A stretch of DNA of 64,000 nucleotides, taken from Desulfurellaceae bacterium bin18 (GTDB lineage Bacteria; Desulfobacterota; Binatia; Bin18). A program made the translations under genes and the position numbers. The stretch is taken from NCBI GenBank assembly GCA_002238415.1, contig MPMI01000017.1, forward strand, positions 1 to 64,000. Reading direction: 5' to 3'. Under the pieces are notes generated by a model, which had not been told where the DNA came from, ran no database searches, and saw only the letters and a program-made list of their open reading frames with translations. Shown here piece after piece: positions 1 to 6,068 of the stretch. The first letter of the stretch is position 1; the number at the start of each line of letters is the position of its first letter.

Positions 1-55
1 CCGCCTCCCGATCCGCCACTACCCGCTCCCGCAGGTCCAATGAATACGCTTGCAT
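1..55 (-). CDS. IS630-family transposase, N-terminal 18 codons (cut by window edge)
   Basis: The minus strand opens with ATG at 55-53 behind a good Shine-Dalgarno (GGAGG, 4 nt spacing). It reads MQAYSLDLRERVVADREA up to the window edge. The S-x-DLRERVV motif is the usual start of the helix-turn-helix domain of IS630/Tc1-type DDE transposases. Only the beginning is visible, so completeness and the far inverted repeat cannot be judged. The family call rests on this short motif alone. Confidence 0.75.
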   Translation of the reverse strand, partial: MQAYSLDLRERVVADREA

Positions 56-153
56 ATGGCCTCCTGGCGACTTCCACCCTAACACTCTTGCTTCCCGACC
101 GCTACACTACGGTGGAAACTGCTCTAGAACCATTCACCATTCTGTGTAGCCTT

Positions 154-226
154 GTAGGTCGGGTTAGCCGTAGGCGTAACCCGACAGTCCGTACTTGTCG
201 GATTACGCTCCGCTAATCCGACCTAC
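154..226. repeat. REP-like palindromic intergenic repeat (two half-palindromes)
   Basis: The segment starts with GTAGGTCGGGTTAGC and ends with the reverse complement of a closely similar half (GCTAATCCGACCTAC). Each half contains its own small GTAACCC/GGGTTA-type hairpin. This TCGGGTTA...TAACCCGACCTAC architecture matches a class of dispersed intergenic repeats common in proteobacterial genomes. Its right end overlaps the 3' end of the small gene at 213-401 and supplies its stop codon. A diverged half copy lies at 4711-4770. Confidence 0.7.
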
Positions 227-401
227 TTACTACTCCGCCCCAGCCATCATACGTCCCGTCATGGTGAAAGAAGTGGTCGAATCCATGCTCGCCATGCAGG
301 CAATCCATCGTCTCCGGTTCATCACTAACCACCCACACGGTTCCATCAGGTAAGTCTATTATTTCCTGCTGCCCTTTTCTACGCACGACAATGATTTTCA
401 T
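213..401 (-). CDS. Small hypothetical acidic protein, 62 aa
   Basis: The ATG at 401-399 is preceded by AAAGGA about 7 nt upstream. The protein begins MKIIVVRRKGQQEIIDLPDG, a compact beta-rich pattern, and continues with a His/Asp-rich stretch (HGFDHFFHHDG). No family recognised. The last residues and the stop codon lie in the REP-like repeat at 154-226, so the repeat may have inserted at or moulded the 3' end. A TATAAT-like -10 on the same strand at 477-472 could serve it. Confidence 0.5.
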   Translation of the reverse strand: MKIIVVRRKGQQEIIDLPDGTVWVVSDEPETMDCLHGEHGFDHFFHHDGTYDGWGGVVSRSD

Positions 402-435
402 AGCGGATTCCTTTCGCCGATATGGGTTGAGTCAT

Positions 436-477
436 GAGGACGGCCTCAGTCGGCGTCCTCTCCCTACCCATATTATA
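436..477 (-). promoter_or_regulatory. Possible leader hairpin and -10 element for the gene at 213-401
   Basis: On the minus strand a TATAAT hexamer lies at 477-472. The intervening transcript would contain a 7-bp inverted repeat, GAGGACG...CGTCCTC (436-460). No convincing -35 is seen, so this is a weak promoter proposal. Confidence 0.25.
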
Positions 478-589
478 CGCTTGAGAAGTGCATATTTACA
501 CGGTCCGGACGAAAAAGTGTAGTAAAAACAAACACCTCTATGGAGGGGCCAGCAGGCGTTCGCCTCGTTCCTGGCTGGAGTGTGGACGT

Positions 590-629
590 AAAAAAGCCCG
601 ACTCCGAGGCAACAGAGCCGGGCTTTTTT
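590..629. terminator. Bidirectional intrinsic terminator
   Basis: An 11-bp perfect stem AAAAAAGCCCG / CGGGCTTTTTT (590-600 and 619-629) gives an A-tract on one side and a U-tract on the other. It would terminate transcription of the minus-strand gene at 651-974 and anything arriving from the left. Confidence 0.85.
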
Positions 630-650
630 CGGGGAACCGAGGGACACGGT

Positions 651-974
651 TCAGTTTTTCTCTCTTCGAAATCCGATTGGATTTTTTACTGGCTCCTGCA
701 TCTGCCCGCGTTGCTCCTGAAGAGCGTTCAGGATGTTCCGGCCCTCCCCTGTAATACGCAGACCAGCAAAACCAACGTGCTTGGATGAACGAAGAGGATT
801 CACGCGGACCAGATTTTTTTCTTTGAGGCTCTCTGCATAGTCATAGAGTTCCTGATGAGATAGTTCGAAGGAGTATTTCTTTTTTAGCGAGATGCTTAAG
901 TCAATATGGGTGAGTGACCTTTGCTCACCCTCCAGGACAAACAGAATAGCTGCTTCAAGTTCACTCAGTTGCAT
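651..974 (-). CDS. Winged-helix-like putative DNA-binding protein, 107 aa
   Basis: The start is placed at ATG 974-972 because GGGAGGG sits 4 nt upstream; the earlier in-frame ATG at 986 is part of that Shine-Dalgarno. Residues 1-70 have helix-turn-helix/wing character: an N-terminal LSELEAAILFVLEGE helix, then a segment like SHQELYDYAESLKEKNLVRVNP, then ITGEGRNIL. This resembles PadR/MarR-type winged-helix proteins, where a 'GLRITGEGR' wing end is typical. The C-terminus is basic and glutamine-rich. Single gene, closed by the terminator at 590-629. Regulatory target unknown; the fold assignment is inference from pattern. Confidence 0.6.
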   Translation of the reverse strand: MQLSELEAAILFVLEGEQRSLTHIDLSISLKKKYSFELSHQELYDYAESLKEKNLVRVNPLRSSKHVGFAGLRITGEGRNILNALQEQRGQMQEPVKNPIGFRREKN

Positions 975-1084
975 GTACCCTCCCATGAAGCGTGCCCCGC
1001 ACGATACCAGGAACGGGGAGACGCGGCCAGCCCTTCGTGATAGTGTCCCGCCAAGCCCGCCCGCTAAGACAGAAAGGAATCTCC

Positions 1085-1378
1085 ATGAGTCAGAGCCAGT
1101 ATAATTTCACCGCGTTGAAAAACGTCTACCCGTCCGTCCTTGACGAGATGGCAGTTGCTTTCACCAGCCACCAGTTTATTCTCGTCCTCGCCCAGCGGAA
1201 TCAGCGTTTGTATATCGAAGCGCTGTATGCCCACCGCCATACGGATGGTCCGTTCCGAGATGTGCACGGCGCACTGGCCAAACTGCTACACGGATTTGCT
1301 ACCCCCTGTGGAAAGGGGGAGAGTAGGAACATCTTTGGCATAGACGGAAAATGTGAGTTCTGGCGTAAACGTCCGTAA
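1085..1378 (+). CDS. Small unknown protein, family A copy 1, 97 aa
   Basis: The start at 1085 (MSQSQYNF) is chosen because AAAGGA lies about 8 nt upstream; a longer frame to 992 has no RBS. No known domain is recognised, but the protein is clearly related to that at 3199-3474. Both share a Y-x-x-AL start, an F(I)-x3-LxQxxQxxYIExL segment, a PFRxVH motif and a C-terminal RxIFG...W-x-R. Two divergent copies within 2.4 kb, on opposite strands and alternating with a GIY-YIG gene, indicate a real family, probably of mobile or accessory origin. Confidence 0.6.
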   Translation: MSQSQYNFTALKNVYPSVLDEMAVAFTSHQFILVLAQRNQRLYIEALYAHRHTDGPFRDVHGALAKLLHGFATPCGKGESRNIFGIDGKCEFWRKRP

Positions 1379-1413
1379 CGGCCTTACTGTGTACACCCTC
1401 CGACACCCGACCA

Positions 1414-1974
1414 CTAGCTGAAAAGCCATCTCACCCATTCCGTCATCTTCTGCATGATCCAGATAATCAGTTTGGAGTGGGCGACGGCGCTCCACCCCTG
1501 CCTGCCCATCTGTCCAAGAGTTAGCGGTGGATACCATGGGGACGCATGCGCCTCTATTGTGCCCCCTCCCGACCGTAGCGAGACGCTTAGTTTGCTGAAC
1601 AGCGGAATCATGGCGTCGTCATCAGGGGGATTGACCGAGAACTCCAATTTCCCAGTGGGTGACGCGGCATTGAGCGCCGTGCAGGGAATGCACGGCTGCA
1701 ACCGTTTCGCGAGCGCATAGGCGACCGTCCGGGCCTCATCAGGCGCGACCTCAGCCCACGCCCAATACACTTCACCGTTCTGGTGCAGGGTCTCGGCGAC
1801 GCAAGCATGGCCAGTGATTTCCCCTACCTCCTTGTCCAGGCGTCCCCACCCGACGCAGAGCGTGCGGTCCCAGACTCCTTCTTCCCGCGCTTCCACGCCC
1901 CTGAGTACGAAGACGCCGGTTTTCTCTTTGAGGTGTCGCGTGTCTGTGTGTTGCCACTCAAGTGTCTTTACCAT
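1414..1974 (-). CDS. Hypothetical protein, possibly degenerate GIY-YIG-like, 186 aa
   Basis: The frame is open for 186 codons from ATG 1974. Residues 20-100 have a layout reminiscent of GIY-YIG domains: a GVFVLRG strand, then LCVGWGRL, a central conserved tryptophan region, an EARTVAYALAKRLQP helix and a closing ALN. The two signature tyrosines are replaced by F and C. If related, it is probably not a standard GIY-YIG nuclease. The C-terminus ends in a Trp/Ile-rich stretch (LIIWIMQKMTEWVRWLF) that may form an amphipathic helix. RBS is weak. It converges on the small gene at 1085-1378. Function unknown. Confidence 0.45.
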   Translation of the reverse strand: MVKTLEWQHTDTRHLKEKTGVFVLRGVEAREEGVWDRTLCVGWGRLDKEVGEITGHACVAETLHQNGEVYWAWAEVAPDEARTVAYALAKRLQPCIPCTALNAASPTGKLEFSVNPPDDDAMIPLFSKLSVSLRSGGGTIEAHASPWYPPLTLGQMGRQGWSAVAHSKLIIWIMQKMTEWVRWLFS

Positions 1975-2331
1975 TACATCTTACTATACGCTCCCCAAAC
2001 CGAAAATTTCCACCACTTCTTAGATATCCCGCTCTGTCGGGTTATCTGCTGAATAACACAGCCTGCAAATCCGGCGTAGGGTAGCTCCCCGTGCCTTGGC
2101 GAATAGGCAGAAAAGCGTTCCTCACATATCTGAGAAATGGTTGCACACGGCCAGGCACACCTGCGTGTGGTGGGTCTCGCTGCTTAGAGAGGGAGGACCA
2201 CGCGTGGCAGAGAGGACACAGAAAACAAGGACAACAGTGGATGCGGGGCCGGGTGTGGCCTTGTCGCTGCGACTCCACTGGTTGTGGTCGTGGTCTTTCT
2301 CTGGGGACGGAAGTAAAGGAGGAAGAAAGCT
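1975..2331. other. Intergenic stretch with no convincing gene
   Basis: Between divergent genes. Overlapping open frames on both strands lack coding character. One plus-strand frame ending at TAA 2314-2316 encodes a short hydrophobic tail (LVAATPLVVVVVFLWGRK) but has no start codon. It may be a remnant of a small membrane protein. GGAGGA just before 2332 is the RBS of the next gene. Confidence 0.4.
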
Positions 2332-2913
2332 ATGCCCAACATCGTGTATGTCCTCATCAATCCTGCCATGTCCGGTTACGTGAAAATCGGACGCACGAAA
2401 AACATCAAAAACAGAATGAGGCACCTCAACACAGGAGCGCCAGAGCGGTTTGAGTGTGCGATTGCCGTGGATGTCGCGCCGGGCAACGCCAGCACTCTGG
2501 AGAAAGCCCTACACAAAGCCTTCACGCCAGATCAAGCAGCATCTGCCAAGGAGTTCTTCAAGATGGACCCGGAGCGCGTGGTGGCGATTCTGCGCGAGTG
2601 GCCTGGCAGGGACGTGACACCAACCACACGGACCACGAAGACGCTGCCCAAAACGAAGAAGAGACCGCCTCTCCATTTTCCGAAGATGGGCATCCCTATA
2701 GGGTCCACCTTGGTGTTTCGCAAGACTGGCGAGAAAGCCGTTGTGGTCGGGGATAAGAAGGTGCAATTTCGAGGAAAAACCATGTCGCTCACGGCAGCCA
2801 CGCGAATCATCCTTGAAATTGAACACAGCATCCAACCCACCCCGCACTGGACGTTCGGGGGACACACGCTTCAGGAACTGTACGATGCGACCTACGGCCC
2901 TCGGGGCGGGTAG
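2332..2913 (+). CDS. GIY-YIG superfamily (T5orf172/Mug113-type) protein with C-terminal RAMA/DUF4357-like domain, 193 aa
   Basis: The start is fixed by GGAGGA upstream. Residues 1-90 match the T5orf172/Mug113 branch of GIY-YIG nucleases: a VYVLINPAM strand, YVKIGRTKNIKNRMRHLN (Y...KIGxT and a catalytic-type Arg), then LEKALHKAF and EFFKMDPE. A Lys/Arg/Pro linker (about 95-118) leads to a second domain: IGSTLVFRKTGEKAVVV, then VQFRGKTMSLTAAT, ending HWTFGGHTLQELY. The 'SLTAA...W-x-F-x-G-x-T-L' pattern matches RAMA/DUF4357 domains found with restriction-modification proteins. A DNA-binding or nicking role is inferred. It sits in an accessory patch between two small family-A genes, consistent with mobile or defence cargo. 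Confidence 0.8.
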   Translation: MPNIVYVLINPAMSGYVKIGRTKNIKNRMRHLNTGAPERFECAIAVDVAPGNASTLEKALHKAFTPDQAASAKEFFKMDPERVVAILREWPGRDVTPTTRTTKTLPKTKKRPPLHFPKMGIPIGSTLVFRKTGEKAVVVGDKKVQFRGKTMSLTAATRIILEIEHSIQPTPHWTFGGHTLQELYDATYGPRGG

Positions 2914-2938
2914 CTCGTCCGTGGGAATCGCAATCGCA

Positions 2939-3037
2939 TTACGGTTTCCCAAACATCCAGCGTCGGACCGTGAGCAATCCGTACACCACAGGATGGAGGG
3001 GCTTCGGAACCTCAAAGGTCTCTTCCAATGTGCCCAT
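2939..3037 (-). CDS. Candidate very small ORF, 32 aa
   Basis: ATG 3037-3035 is preceded by GGAAGG (spacing only 2 nt). It encodes a 32-residue peptide beginning MGTLEETFEVPKPLHPVVYG and ending RRWMFGKP. It has no coding gene opposite, and its composition looks protein-like. It could be a small gene or the 3' end of a lost one. No family recognised. Confidence 0.25.
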   Translation of the reverse strand: MGTLEETFEVPKPLHPVVYGLLTVRRWMFGKP

Positions 3038-3136
3038 CACCTTCCCACGCGACAGGGCGGATAGTCCGTACTGTCAACTCATAAAATCAATGAGTTTTAT
3101 TGGCGGTCCTTGTCTGCTGGGGAGGGCTGTTGTCGT

Positions 3137-3191
3137 ATAAGCGTCACGTTCAGTGCGTGAGCACGCTATAATGGCGGGTAAGTGACGCTTT
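3137..3191. promoter_or_regulatory. Inverted repeat enclosing a TATAAT -10-like element
   Basis: AAGCGTCAC (3139-3147) and GTGACGCTT (3182-3190) form a 9-bp perfect inverted repeat. Inside it lie a second palindrome, GCGTG-AG-CACGC, and TATAAT at 3167-3172. It lies just downstream of the minus-strand gene at 3199-3474 and has no obvious plus-strand gene to drive. It could be an operator or promoter, or a mobile-element end. Function not assigned. Confidence 0.3.
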
Positions 3192-3198
3192 TATCAAG

Positions 3199-3474
3199 CT
3201 AGAGTCTTTCCCATAGCGGGACCGTTTCCGGGTCTCCGAAAATATCGCGGTCGTTCGTGTAGCCTATTTTCTTCACCGTCTTGGACCGAATAAGCCATAG
3301 CATAATCTGGCTGTGAACCGCCCGGAACGGGGACGGGGATTGCGGATACTGGCCTAAAAATTCAATATACCGCTGCTGATAGAGCTGCGTTAGTCGCCGA
3401 ATAAAGTCGTAGCTGTTGAATGTGCGCGGTAGGTGGTCGAGCGCAGTATGGTATTCTTTGTGGGTAAAAGACAT
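3199..3474 (-). CDS. Small unknown protein, family A copy 2, 91 aa
   Basis: The protein starts MSFTHKEYHTALDHLP at ATG 3474. The open frame runs further upstream but the extra residues look non-coding. It aligns with 1085-1378 along its length: YxTAL, FIRRLTQLYQQRYIEFL, SPFRAVH, RDIFGDP and a final LWERL. It has no recognisable domain or membrane segment. RBS weak. The alignment of this start with the start of copy 1 supports the chosen ATG. Confidence 0.55.
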   Translation of the reverse strand: MSFTHKEYHTALDHLPRTFNSYDFIRRLTQLYQQRYIEFLGQYPQSPSPFRAVHSQIMLWLIRSKTVKKIGYTNDRDIFGDPETVPLWERL

Positions 3475-3745
3475 GAGCGTTCTATTCGGCGAATAACCCG
3501 ACGGTGGCGAGCGTTCTGCGAATTGTTCACATTTTATTCTCCTGTCGGACGGCAGCGCATTACCAAGTGGGCCGGATTGGGTTGGAGTGTGTAGGTTGAC
3601 CCTAAAGCATGGTCGATCATTCCGCCTAATATCACCCCAGTGCCGGACATGGTCGGATACAGCGAGACGGTCCCATTTTCGCACCCGTCCTTGGTATAAT
3701 GCAAGCCAAGCACCTTAGCGGATTGTAATCTGACCGTTGCGCGGG

Positions 3746-4183
3746 GTGATTTTTACTGCTGTAATCCTCGCGACTGGAGCGCAGATGTTGAGCAAGACCT
3801 TTCCTATCGTGATGGATACGGGGATCGTCTCAATCCTGACCATTGCTTCATTCCTGTTGCTGGCCTTCACGATGGAGACGATAGGGGGTATTCACGCCAT
3901 ACCGAGGATAGACATAACATCCATCTCAACTGCCGGCTTTCTGTTTTTTGGCACGGTGGGGTTTACCATTGTCGGCTGTCGAGCACCGCATCCCTTCTGG
4001 CCGCACTTAATGCGGGTGGCAGTCGGATATTGGTTCATTCTTCTGTTGTTCATACTGCTGACCACAGACGTAGAGATTTTTGTGCTGTGGCTGATTACTG
4101 GTCCCTTTCTTATCACCCCTGTCGTGGGTTTAGGTGGGATGGCATCTTTTGTGGTCATACATCTGGATCAGAGGAGCACGTAA
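3746..4183 (+). CDS. Small integral membrane protein, about 145 aa
   Basis: Four hydrophobic segments are visible: residues about 2-22, 26-44, 54-78 (interrupted) and 92-140 (two spans). The protein ends in a short hydrophilic tail. No family recognised. The start is uncertain: GTG 3746 is used here, TTG 3737 and ATG 3785 are alternatives, and none has a strong RBS. A TATAAT at 3695-3700 may be its -10. No transporter or enzyme motif seen. Confidence 0.5.
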   Translation: MIFTAVILATGAQMLSKTFPIVMDTGIVSILTIASFLLLAFTMETIGGIHAIPRIDITSISTAGFLFFGTVGFTIVGCRAPHPFWPHLMRVAVGYWFILLLFILLTTDVEIFVLWLITGPFLITPVVGLGGMASFVVIHLDQRST

Positions 4184-4206
4184 CCCAAGTTGCAGATTCA
4201 AATTGA

Positions 4207-4350
4207 CGCACTACCCGATATCCGGACCTGTTGCACGCGGATTTTCCGAAACTCCAGGCGGTATACGACAGGGGCGCGGCGTTGCCACAAATCCGGGCCT
4301 GGATACAGACCCACCAGGCTGACTACCCCCGATTCAGTGCGGGCGGCTAG
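4207..4350 (+). pseudogene. 3' gene fragment lacking a start codon
   Basis: After a TGA at 4204-4206 the frame stays open to TAG 4348-4350. It encodes a protein-like C-terminus (DLLHADFPKLQAVYDRGAAL, then QIRAWIQTHQADYPRF) with helix-like periodicity. There is no ATG, GTG or RBS at its head. Most simply this is the tail of a truncated gene. No family recognised. Confidence 0.35.
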
Positions 4351-4423
4351 CAGGAAACGCTGTAAAAATTCCGGGAAAAGTAAAGGCGGTTGAGACCGTA
4401 ATCCCGCTCTGCCCGCCCCTTCC

Positions 4424-4663
4424 TTATTGTTGGGCGGTCCGTTCGATCAGCGTCCGCAGTGCCAGTATGTTTTCCTCATGCCGTCCCTCGGCGAGGTCCG
4501 TTTGGCGTTGTCGGTCAGTATTGCTCCGCTGCATCAGCTTGAGACCGTAGGCAATCAAGAGGCATTGCACCAATCCTATCAGGCCCGCCACCCCGGCCTG
4601 GGCATAGGTTGCCGATAGAGAAGCATTCTGGAAAGAAATCGTCGCTGCCTCAAACTCACTCAT
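4424..4663 (-). CDS. Small single-span membrane protein, family B copy 1, 79 aa
   Basis: The start MSEFEAAT at ATG 4663 is chosen by alignment with the paralogue at 18718-18942, which begins VSEEL. One transmembrane helix (about residues 22-44, VAGLIGLVQCLLIAYGLKLM) is followed by a charged cytoplasmic tail ending ENILALRTLIERTAQQ. This tail is nearly identical to that of the paralogue. Function unknown; a small inner-membrane protein with a coiled or amphipathic tail. The 14-kb separation and conserved DNA at the 3' end suggest dispersed accessory genes. Confidence 0.6.
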   Translation of the reverse strand: MSEFEAATISFQNASLSATYAQAGVAGLIGLVQCLLIAYGLKLMQRSNTDRQRQTDLAEGRHEENILALRTLIERTAQQ

Positions 4664-4710
4664 AGGATTATTTTTTCCTATGCTGAATCCTCCGTCAAGA
4701 CGAGCAGCCT

Positions 4711-4770
4711 TGCATGTCGGGCGAGCCGCAGGCGTAACCCGACATCCCGTACTATCGGGCAACGCTCTAC
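4711..4770. repeat. Diverged half copy of the REP-like repeat
   Basis: TGTCGGGCGAGCCGCAGGCG followed by TAACCCGACATCCCGTACT resembles the left half and spacer of the repeat at 154-226 with several changes. It lies immediately downstream of the minus-strand dehydrogenase gene ending at 4767. Confidence 0.45.
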
Positions 4771-6068
4771 TGAAAGGGATACGGCAGAAGATGCTCTTTG
4801 GCATTCAGGTCGTGGATGGAAGCGCAACCCAGGAGCCGCAGGGTATCCTCAATTTCTTTTTTCAGGATGGCAAACGCCTTGCGCACCCCCGCTTCTCCCC
4901 CCGCCCCAAGACCATACACATACGCCCGGCCGGCTAAGACCGCATCCGCGCCGTGGGCCAGGGCAATGACGACATCTCCGCCGGAACGAATGCCGCCGTC
5001 CAACAAGATGGTCAACTTGGAGTCCTTGAGTTCGGCTGCGATGTCTTTCAGGACGTATAAGGTCGGGTAGACGCGATCCATCTGACGCCCGCCGTGGTTA
5101 GAGATGATAATGCCGTCCACGCCATGTTCGACCGCCAGCCGGGCATCTTCGACACACTGCACGCCCTTCACCAGGATGGGCTTATCCGTCCCCCAGATTT
5201 CCCGAATCCAGGGCAGATGCTCCCAGGTGACAACCGAGGTGCGCAGTTGGGCGCCAACATCCGCGTAGGGCATCGGCTGTCCGTCGTTCAGAATGACATT
5301 GCGAAATTGCATCATCCCGCCGTCCGCGTAAAAGCTCTGCAGCCAGGAGAGATGGGGGATCATTTGCGGGCCAAATTTCAGTTTCTGGAAGGGCGTGCCG
5401 TTAATCGCCTGCGAGGCACCGAGCCATTCGTGCTGGGCGCGATTCCCGGCGACCGCGGTATCGATGGTCAGCACCAGCGCGGAATAGCCGGCGTTTTTCG
5501 CCCGTTCGATCCCGCGGGCGGCGACTTCTTTTCCCCCAACGAGATACAGTTGATACCAACACGGTCCTGGCGAGGCGGTGCGGACTTCTTCCAGGTCGGT
5601 CCCCGTCAGGGTGGAGAGCGTGCAGATCGTCCCGGCTTCACCGACCGCCTTGGCGGCGACGGCTTCTCCGCGCGGCCAGAGCATGCGGGGACTGCCTATC
5701 GGCGCGGCGATAACCGGCAGCGCAATGGAGTGTCCCAGAATTTCGGTCCGCATCTCTACTGCGTCAAGCTGGACCGCACTTCTCGGCTTAAAGCGTTCTC
5801 TTTGAAAGGCTTCGACATTATCCCTGAGCGTGATTTCGTTGTCGGCACCGCCACGATAATATTCTCTCACAATCGGTGGCACGCGCTTCTCCATCACCTG
5901 CCGGAGATGATCGATGGTGACGCATTTTTCGACCGCTCTGGCCCAACGCTTTACACTTCTGGCATGCGCGCGCCGGAGGTAGGGGTGCAGCAGCCGCAGC
6001 CCGGTAGGGTGTTCATTGAGGGCAGGCGTGTGCCCGAGATTCCGTTCGAGAGTCTGCGGGTGAGTCAT
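4767..6068 (-). CDS. FMN-dependent alpha-hydroxy-acid dehydrogenase/oxidase, 433 aa
   Basis: A cytoplasmic (S)-2-hydroxy-acid oxidase of the glycolate oxidase/lactate monooxygenase/mandelate dehydrogenase family. Family hallmarks are present: the YYRGGADNE N-terminal tyrosine, APIGSPRM, the YQLY flavin-side motif (about 172-175), a catalytic-type lysine in ILVKGV (about 301), SNHGGR with the active-site His-Arg (about 323-328), and DGGIRSGGD (about 357-364), which binds the FMN phosphate. The start at ATG 6068 lies 11 nt after the upstream LLM gene stop. The domain proper begins about 50 residues in. It is third in an operon with two LLM enzymes (8094 to 4767), which suggests a shared oxidative pathway. 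Substrate unknown. Confidence 0.88.
   Translation of the reverse strand: MTHPQTLERNLGHTPALNEHPTGLRLLHPYLRRAHARSVKRWARAVEKCVTIDHLRQVMEKRVPPIVREYYRGGADNEITLRDNVEAFQRERFKPRSAVQLDAVEMRTEILGHSIALPVIAAPIGSPRMLWPRGEAVAAKAVGEAGTICTLSTLTGTDLEEVRTASPGPCWYQLYLVGGKEVAARGIERAKNAGYSALVLTIDTAVAGNRAQHEWLGASQAINGTPFQKLKFGPQMIPHLSWLQSFYADGGMMQFRNVILNDGQPMPYADVGAQLRTSVVTWEHLPWIREIWGTDKPILVKGVQCVEDARLAVEHGVDGIIISNHGGRQMDRVYPTLYVLKDIAAELKDSKLTILLDGGIRSGGDVVIALAHGADAVLAGRAYVYGLGAGGEAGVRKAFAILKKEIEDTLRLLGCASIHDLNAKEHLLPYPFQ

What the first reader, a model, noticed from the sequence alone, without database searches (positions are those of the whole stretch)
1085..3474. Unknown small-protein family A in two copies around a GIY-YIG/RAMA protein
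The 97-aa (1085) and 91-aa (3199) proteins align throughout (YxxAL, FI-x3-LxQ-x2-Q-x2-YIE, PFRxVH, RxIFG). They lie on opposite strands within 2.4 kb, either side of a GIY-YIG/RAMA-like protein. No known domain explains them. Accessory setting next to restriction-type modules suggests defence or mobile-element function.
Basis: partly seen in the sequence, partly recalled or inferred. Interest (0 to 1): 0.55.

Follow-up and report, generated by a model that had tools for sequence, protein, structure and literature searches.

The report
Undescribed winged-helix family among bacterial defences
Two small sister proteins in this genome belong to an unnamed family with a predicted winged-helix shape, which in other bacteria is carried on mobile gene cassettes, fused to a TIR domain, or packed into anti-virus operons, so it is probably a recognition or docking piece of bacterial immunity, although its function has not been tested.

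Summary
The 97-aa (1085-1378 +) and 91-aa (3199-3474 -) proteins are paralogues (BLASTP E 8e-12; local score 93 against a maximum of 49 in 5,000 shuffles) on either side of a T5orf172/GIY-YIG protein. Pfam, NCBIfam, PHROGs and PADLOC gave no credible match. AlphaFold2 models both as a confident winged helix (pLDDT 90.7 and 94.2). Relatives lie in the same genus, in Proteobacteria, on a Photobacterium plasmid and in Chloroflexi-type genomes. There the family occurs as an integron cassette, as a C-terminal domain fused to TIR, and in operons with type IIG enzymes, GmrSD-type proteins, PLD/SNF2 helicases and Hma genes. In 14 of 28 loci it is fused to, or within two ORFs of, a defence-type gene; control ORFs show no such enrichment. 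In the window the genes lie in DNA that is mostly absent from six genus relatives and ends in a copy of a GST-like gene's 3' end. Best reading (inferred): a mobile winged-helix recognition or docking subunit of diverse defence enzymes. A pairing with the GIY-YIG protein is not shown.

The parts
1085..1378 (+). A1, 97-aa family member, predicted winged helix
3199..3474 (-). A2, 91-aa family member, predicted winged helix
2332..2913 (+). T5orf172/GIY-YIG protein, 193 aa, between the two copies; partnership not shown
   Evidence: Pfam T5orf172 E 1.8e-14; 39.7% over 96% of its length to a Sphingomonas plasmid protein named GIY-YIG nuclease family
1414..1974 (-). 186-aa protein, island cargo; related over 87 residues to a 130-aa protein in the C61 insert
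   Evidence: no Pfam match at E up to 5; E 1e-6
651..986 (-). 111-aa protein, weak HTH-type matches, island cargo
   Evidence: PHROG 4278 E 5e-5; Pfam HTH_45 only E 0.076; an 81% DNA counterpart in G004
4214..4350 (+). Copy of the last part of a GST-like gene (att-like repeat) at the right edge of the island
   Evidence: 95% to the second copy on contig C61, 84% to the end of the intact gene there; joined to the flank conserved in relatives
1..127 (.). Dispersed repeat at the contig start, probably the end of an insertion sequence; left edge of the visible island
   Evidence: 100% copies on other contigs of this genome, 99% copies in G001, several at contig ends

Best explanation
A1 and A2 are members of an undescribed family of about 95-aa winged-helix proteins that travels with mobile DNA and serves unrelated defence enzymes as a small recognition or docking module. 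Shown: the family, its predicted fold, its carriage on integron cassettes, its fusion to TIR, and its same-strand, partly overlapping gene order with type IIG, Hma, PLD/SNF2-helicase and GmrSD genes. Inferred: the winged helix binds nucleic acid, an infection signal or a partner protein and so positions or switches on the enzyme beside it or fused to it; in the TIR fusion, binding would activate the N-terminal NADase-type domain. In this window the two copies are island cargo with no shown partner; the T5orf172 protein is only a candidate.
For: Family and no known model. Winged-helix models (87, 123) with mostly winged-helix structural neighbours. TIR_2 domain E 1.7e-20 at the N-terminus of L070, L069 the same apart from 25 of 253 residues. 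4-nt overlaps with a type IIG gene (L038), an SNF2 helicase gene beside an HmaB gene (L075) and a PLD/SNF2 helicase gene (L076); gaps of 2-21 nt in L072, L078, L081. 14 of 28 loci with a defence-type gene fused or within two ORFs, same strand in all 13 unfused cases. Neighbour ORFs: ResIII 5, GmrSD_N 4, SNF2 3, TIR_2 2, Eco57I 2, N6_Mtase 2 of 106, none of these in two or more of 103 control ORFs. Integron cassette with attC-type repeats and integrases. Purifying selection, pN/pS 0.036 in one pair.
Against: The other 14 of 28 loci show no defence gene in the two ORFs on each side. The window's own genes are not in an operon with the nuclease. 18 of 24 members have a calculated pI below 8, so DNA binding is not evident from charge. 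In G932 the type IIG gene is missing at the locus while the family gene stays intact, and in integrons it is a cassette of its own, so no fixed partner exists. PADLOC family numbers are inflated because a few helicases match many models. No experiment.
Confidence: 0.5

Rival explanations
1. It is a transcription factor that controls expression of restriction or other costly defence genes, as the controller (C) proteins of some restriction-modification systems do.
For: Winged-helix model; small genes in the same operons as restriction enzymes; A1 and A2 have calculated pI 9.3 and 9.4.
Against: Fusion to a TIR effector domain; position behind the enzyme gene in L038, L072 and L102; no XRE-type HTH match; standalone integron cassettes without an adjacent regulated gene in the same cassette.
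Confidence: 0.2
2. It is a protein-protein docking module or an inhibitor that holds the neighbouring enzyme in check, in the manner of an antitoxin or immunity protein.
For: MukE, a protein-interaction winged-helix protein (recalled), is the top structural row, Z 7.3 and 8.1; near-neutral charge in most members; tight gene order with toxic-type enzymes.
Against: Carried as a cassette of its own; kept where the type IIG gene is missing; no defence partner within two ORFs in 14 of 28 loci.
Confidence: 0.15
3. It is general mobile-element cargo whose function has nothing to do with defence; the shared places reflect only that cargo gathers in variable regions.
For: Half of the 28 loci lack a defence neighbour; standalone cassettes; mixed island content in this window; divergent members behind a SpoIIE/HATPase-type protein.
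Against: Fusion to a TIR domain in two genomes (57, 61, 130) and 4-nt overlaps with the genes of large defence-type enzymes (57) are more than shared location.
Confidence: 0.15

Closest known systems
Winged helix-turn-helix proteins (MukE, NadQ, Fur, forkhead, cullin WHB and the DpnI C-terminal domain as structural neighbours)
   Same: Predicted arrangement of helices and a two-stranded wing; VIA-align Z 5.8-8.1
   Different: No sequence match to a solved structure (searches give only chance hits to designed repeats); no Foldseek match at E 0.001; Z values too low to show kinship
Hma system / Type-1 BR system (DUF499 ATPase, DUF1156 methyltransferase, SNF2 helicase)
   Same: Divergent members are encoded inside such operons (L075, L081)
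   Different: The published description of Type-1 BR systems read here (PMC12839542 section 29) names ATPase, methyltransferase and helicase and no such small protein; most members are elsewhere
Integron cassette proteins of unknown function
   Same: attC-type repeats at the gene and integron integrases in the genomes
   Different: The window's genome has no integron integrase by TIGR02249, and most members are not on integrons
TIR effectors of defence systems (ThsB, SAVED-TIR and others)
   Same: The fused TIR domain of L070 matches TIR_2 and ThsB_TIR models
   Different: The C-terminal half is this family, not a known sensor domain; most members have no TIR
Restriction-modification controller (C) proteins
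   Same: Small HTH-type protein encoded with restriction genes
   Different: Winged helix and not XRE type, behind the enzyme gene in L038, L072, L102, fused to TIR in two genomes

Membership tests
Winged helix-turn-helix superfamily | Helices, short strand and a two-stranded wing in the model | tested here: met
   A1 pLDDT 90.7, A2 pLDDT 94.2, same order of elements
Winged helix-turn-helix superfamily | Clear structural or sequence match to a solved member | tested here: inconclusive
   VIA-align Z up to 7.3 and 8.1; no Foldseek match at E 0.001
Any curated family in Pfam, NCBIfam, PHROGs or PADLOC | Match to a model | tested here: not met
   A1 and A2 against all four; 24 members against Pfam and NCBIfam gave scattered hits to unrelated models only, best E 0.0015 in one member
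Integron cassette | Gene bounded by attC sites next to an integron integrase | tested here: met
   L036: identical 54-nt attC-type repeats on both sides, integrase in the same array; L037: integrase beside the gene, attC-type sequence behind it. attC identified from recalled motifs
Integron cassette (the window's own copies) | Integron integrase in the genome | tested here: not met
   No TIGR02249 match at E 1e-20 in G000; assembly 96% complete
Hma / Type-1 BR system component | Encoded inside the operon of helicase, methyltransferase and ATPase | tested here: met
   For L075 (HmaB model E 0, SNF2 helicase) and L081 (HmaC model E 0) only; not for the window
Restriction-modification controller (C) protein | XRE-type HTH (Pfam HTH_3) | tested here: not met
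   No HTH_3 match in A1, A2 or the 24 members
Restriction-modification controller (C) protein | Binds its own operon's promoter | not testable with these tools
   needs a binding assay
Anti-phage defence protein | Protects against phage | not testable with these tools
   needs an infection assay

The most novel reading that the evidence does not exclude
The family is a portable sensor: one winged-helix domain that recognises a common hallmark of invading DNA or of infection and is plugged, as a free subunit or by fusion, into mechanistically unrelated effectors (TIR, type IIG, type III-like, GmrSD, Hma, PLD/SNF2 helicase), and that integrons trade as a cassette of its own for use by whatever effectors the host holds.
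Probability: 0.2. Interest if true: 0.85.

Novelty: new variant of a known kind. Interest (0 to 1): 0.55.

Why it matters
Small proteins inside defence operons are easily skipped in annotation. This one recurs across distant phyla and beside at least six kinds of effector, has no model in the four family libraries scanned, and moves on integrons. If it is a shared recognition or activation module it would link systems now treated as separate and give a direct handle on what they sense. If it is not, the TIR fusion and the overlapping genes still call for an explanation that a simple deletion test can give.

Tried and rejected
PDB sequence hits of the profile (8cwy, 8cws; E 3e-6 to 5e-6) are designed repeat proteins in which several weak stretches add up and none passes on its own, so they are taken as chance. 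CRAL_TRIO for A2 (E 0.12; 2 of 24 members, best E 0.009) is taken as chance. Phage origin: no relative in viral contigs (four scans) and none credible in phage records (one 48-residue match at E 0.7). Plasmids: one record, Photobacterium toruni, and none with the L078 member. An integron array in the window itself: no TIGR02249 match in the genome. RAMA in the GIY-YIG protein: not seen by Pfam at E up to 5. An integrase for the GST-end island: none recognised by eye in the parts on the two contigs; both contigs end inside it, so absence is not shown, nor is it shown that the two parts are adjacent. Structure families not listed by VIA-align are not excluded.

Literature: searches listed no paper that I recognised as describing this family; of PMC12839542 I saw passages and section 29, of the other papers only the search listings with the start of their abstracts. 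Preprints and most subscription papers are not held there.

Limits of the neighbour test: ORFs were called by length and overlap, not by a gene finder; the control stretches were picked by hand in the same genomes (20 asked for, 18 obtained); only the first 25 families per set are printed (of 190 and 36 in PADLOC, 78 and 126 in Pfam), and the members behind each count are not named; L066, L070 and L080 were left out as near-duplicates of L038, L069 and L077; the weak partial matches L041 and L096 were not followed. Genome searches score at most a capped number of candidates per genome (12), so members may be missed.
Full report
What is there. A1 is 97 aa at 1085-1378 (+), A2 is 91 aa at 3199-3474 (-). 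They align over 83 columns at 33% identity, E 8e-12, and A1 finds A2 in the whole genome at E 5.3e-6. In 5,000 shuffles of A2 the best local score was 49 against 93 observed. Between them lie a 186-aa gene (-) and a 193-aa T5orf172/GIY-YIG protein (+). The order A1 (+), 186 aa (-), GIY-YIG (+), A2 (-) is not one operon.

No known family. A1 and A2 match nothing credible in Pfam, NCBIfam, PHROGs or PADLOC. After the family had been extended, 24 members scanned one by one gave only scattered hits to unrelated models in Pfam (14 families at E up to 1, best E 0.0015 in one member) and NCBIfam (8 families, best E 0.036).

Relatives. With A2, 21 of 58 related genomes had some match at E up to 1, but only G000 itself, G006 (E 8e-17) and G002 (E 9.6e-6), all of one genus, had one better than 0.03. 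The four-row profile matched 4 of 148 genomes of the class at E 0.01, one of them (G097) only over 32 positions at E 0.005. G006's contig has the length and coordinates of a public record titled uncultured Candidatus Binatia bacterium. The genome-contig scan gave five loci: that one, a Proteobacteria MAG (L035), a Giesbergeria MAG (L036), Thauera sp. Sel9 (L037) and a Chloroflexi MAG (L038). One plasmid, of Photobacterium toruni, carries a member. The nine-row profile matched 1 of 395 genomes drawn from the phylum, the window's own, 2 of 399 in the order of the Thauera genome, one being that genome and the other divergent (L082), and 15 of 151 in the order of the Chloroflexi genome, itself included. 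The 24-row profile matched 9 of 396 in the class of G1014, four of them known already. The divergent group found beside Hma and PLD-helicase genes is related to the core: its own six-row alignment against the nine-row core alignment gives hhalign probability 99.1%, E 4.8e-19 over 88 columns.

Fold. AlphaFold2 on 7-row alignments gave pLDDT 90.7 for A1 and 94.2 for A2: helix, short strand, two helices, a 15-residue helix and a two-stranded wing. Foldseek with the A1 model found no match at E 0.001 in the PDB or in BFVD. The VIA-align rows are mostly proteins with winged helices (recalled): MukE first (Z 7.3 for A1, 8.1 for A2), then NadQ, Fur, forkhead, cullin WHB and DpnI. Such Z values show a common arrangement, not ancestry or function.

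Neighbourhoods (coordinates; families). L038: type IIG enzyme (Eco57I) overlapping the family gene by 4 nt. L072: type IIG, 16 nt. L102: methyltransferase (N6_N4_Mtase) and ResIII helicase, then the family gene after 98 nt. L075: SNF2 helicase overlapping by 4 nt, HmaB further on. L081: 21 nt before HmaC. L076: overlapping by 4 nt a 1078-aa protein 76% identical to the PLD/SNF2 helicase of L078. L078: between a GmrSD_N protein (3 nt) and the PLD/SNF2 helicase (2 nt). L068: TIR proteins before (one scanned, TIR_2 E 6e-23) and GmrSD 101 nt after. L071: before a cut-off protein 78% identical to L068's GmrSD. L035/L106: GmrSD 168 nt after. L037: HNH/Mrr protein 73 nt after. L030 (G002): N6-methyltransferase and HNH protein before. 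L100: HsdM and a TIR protein before. In L069 and L070 the family domain is the C-terminal part of a TIR protein (TIR_2 E 1.7e-20 for L070). That makes 14 of 28 loci with a defence-type gene fused or within two ORFs, on the same strand in all 13 unfused cases, overlapping or within 21 nt in 6 of them. The other 14 loci (the window, its GIY-YIG gene not being counted, and L029, L036, L042, L067, L073, L074, L077, L079, L082, L099, L101, L103, L104) show none by these results.

Control. 106 ORFs (up to two on each side) of the 28 loci were compared with 103 ORFs from 18 stretches of the same genomes. PADLOC at E 1e-10: 190 families against 36. These are families, not proteins: in the test set no family matched more than 3 ORFs and a few helicases match many models; of the 25 control families shown, 21 are PD-T4-6 models with one ORF each. 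Pfam at E 1e-5: ResIII 5, GmrSD_N 4, Helicase_C 4, SNF2 3, TIR_2 2, DEAD 2, Eco57I 2, N6_Mtase 2, PLDc_2 2, MmeI_Mtase 2 ORFs in the test set; the control families with two or more ORFs are dehydrogenases, glycosyltransferases, binding proteins, MerR and the like. Single control hits beyond the 25 shown cannot be seen.

Mobility. In L036 the gene (4378-4677) lies between identical 54-nt repeats (4062-4115 and 4673-4726) that look like integron attC sites (motif recalled), with two more divergent copies in the array. In L037 an attC-type sequence follows the gene, and the HNH/Mrr gene begins behind it. Integron integrases over the TIGR02249 cut-off are in 3 of 8 genomes or records searched: the three proteobacterial ones, with the integrase beside the gene in L037, in the same array in L036 and on another contig for L035; not in G000, G002, G006, G151 or the plasmid.

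The window's island. Window 1-4213 was searched in the seven genomes of the genus. Outside this genome it matches at the DNA level only dispersed repeats (1-243 and 2030-2168), the 111-aa gene region in G004 (650-976, 81%) and part of A1 in G002 (1093-1224, 73%). Window 1-127 has 100% copies on other contigs, several at contig ends, so the contig probably breaks at an insertion-sequence end. DNA from 4752 on, and 4225-4351 in several, is conserved in relatives. In G006 a GST-like gene (name recalled; 248-aa ORF) precedes that flank, and the DNA block with this gene aligns in G001, G003 and G005. In the window's genome the intact gene with part of its conserved left flank is on contig C61, followed by 5.6 kb of other DNA and a second copy of the gene's last ~130 bases; the window's 4214-4350 is a third copy, 95% like the second and 84% like the intact gene's end. 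This is the pattern of one or more islands at a gene's 3' end, though rearrangement by insertion sequences is not excluded. The C61 insert carries a 241-aa protein 71% identical to one in G002's family locus and a 130-aa protein related to the window's 186-aa protein (E 1e-6).

Selection. G151 (L038) and G932 (L066) share the locus, but the type IIG gene is missing there in G932 apart from its last ~35 bases before the family gene. The family gene is intact in both, with 9 synonymous and 1 replacement change, pN/pS 0.036. Whether G932 has the enzyme elsewhere was not tested.

Reading. The TIR fusion and the overlapping genes argue for a working link with defence enzymes. The standalone cassettes, the retention where a partner is missing and the 14 loci without a defence gene argue against one fixed partner. 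A portable winged-helix subunit fits best. Whether it binds nucleic acid or proteins is open: 6 of 24 members have a calculated pI above 8, A1 and A2 among them. For the window itself the family, the predicted fold and the island are supported; a function with the GIY-YIG protein is not shown.

Novelty. The fold is known; the family is not described as far as the libraries and the paper searches named in Tried and rejected go. I rate it a new variant of a known kind.

Noticed in passing
window 4423-4703: A dispersed element of about 280 bases with 75-83% copies at many places in this genome and its genus relatives; it overlaps an ORF of 126 aa (4424-4804 -).
   Followed up: no
window 148-210 and 4706-4767: REP-like repeat (GTAGGTCGGGTTAGC...) on both sides of the island; many copies in the genus.
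   Followed up: partly
window 1-127: Repeat with identical copies on other contigs, several at contig ends: probably an insertion-sequence end at which the assembly breaks.
   Followed up: no
L145 1-5900 (G000 contig C61): 5.6-kb insert behind an intact GST-like gene, with a transposase-like piece, a 241-aa protein shared with G002's family locus (71%) and a small GIY-YIG-like protein (by eye).
   Followed up: partly
L038 2480-5931 against L066: A type IIG restriction-modification gene present in G151 and cleanly missing in G932 between UvrD-type helicase and family gene, leaving about 35 bases of its end.
   Followed up: partly
L077 7768-8064 and L080 162-461: Divergent family members beside a 574-aa and a 394-aa protein (SpoIIE-type by the aggregate Pfam list, and by eye), a setting unlike defence.
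   Followed up: no
L068 4477-8501: Two TIR-type proteins (402 aa by eye, 602 aa by Pfam), a 91-aa protein, the family gene and a GmrSD protein in a row on one strand: a possible composite defence operon.
   Followed up: no
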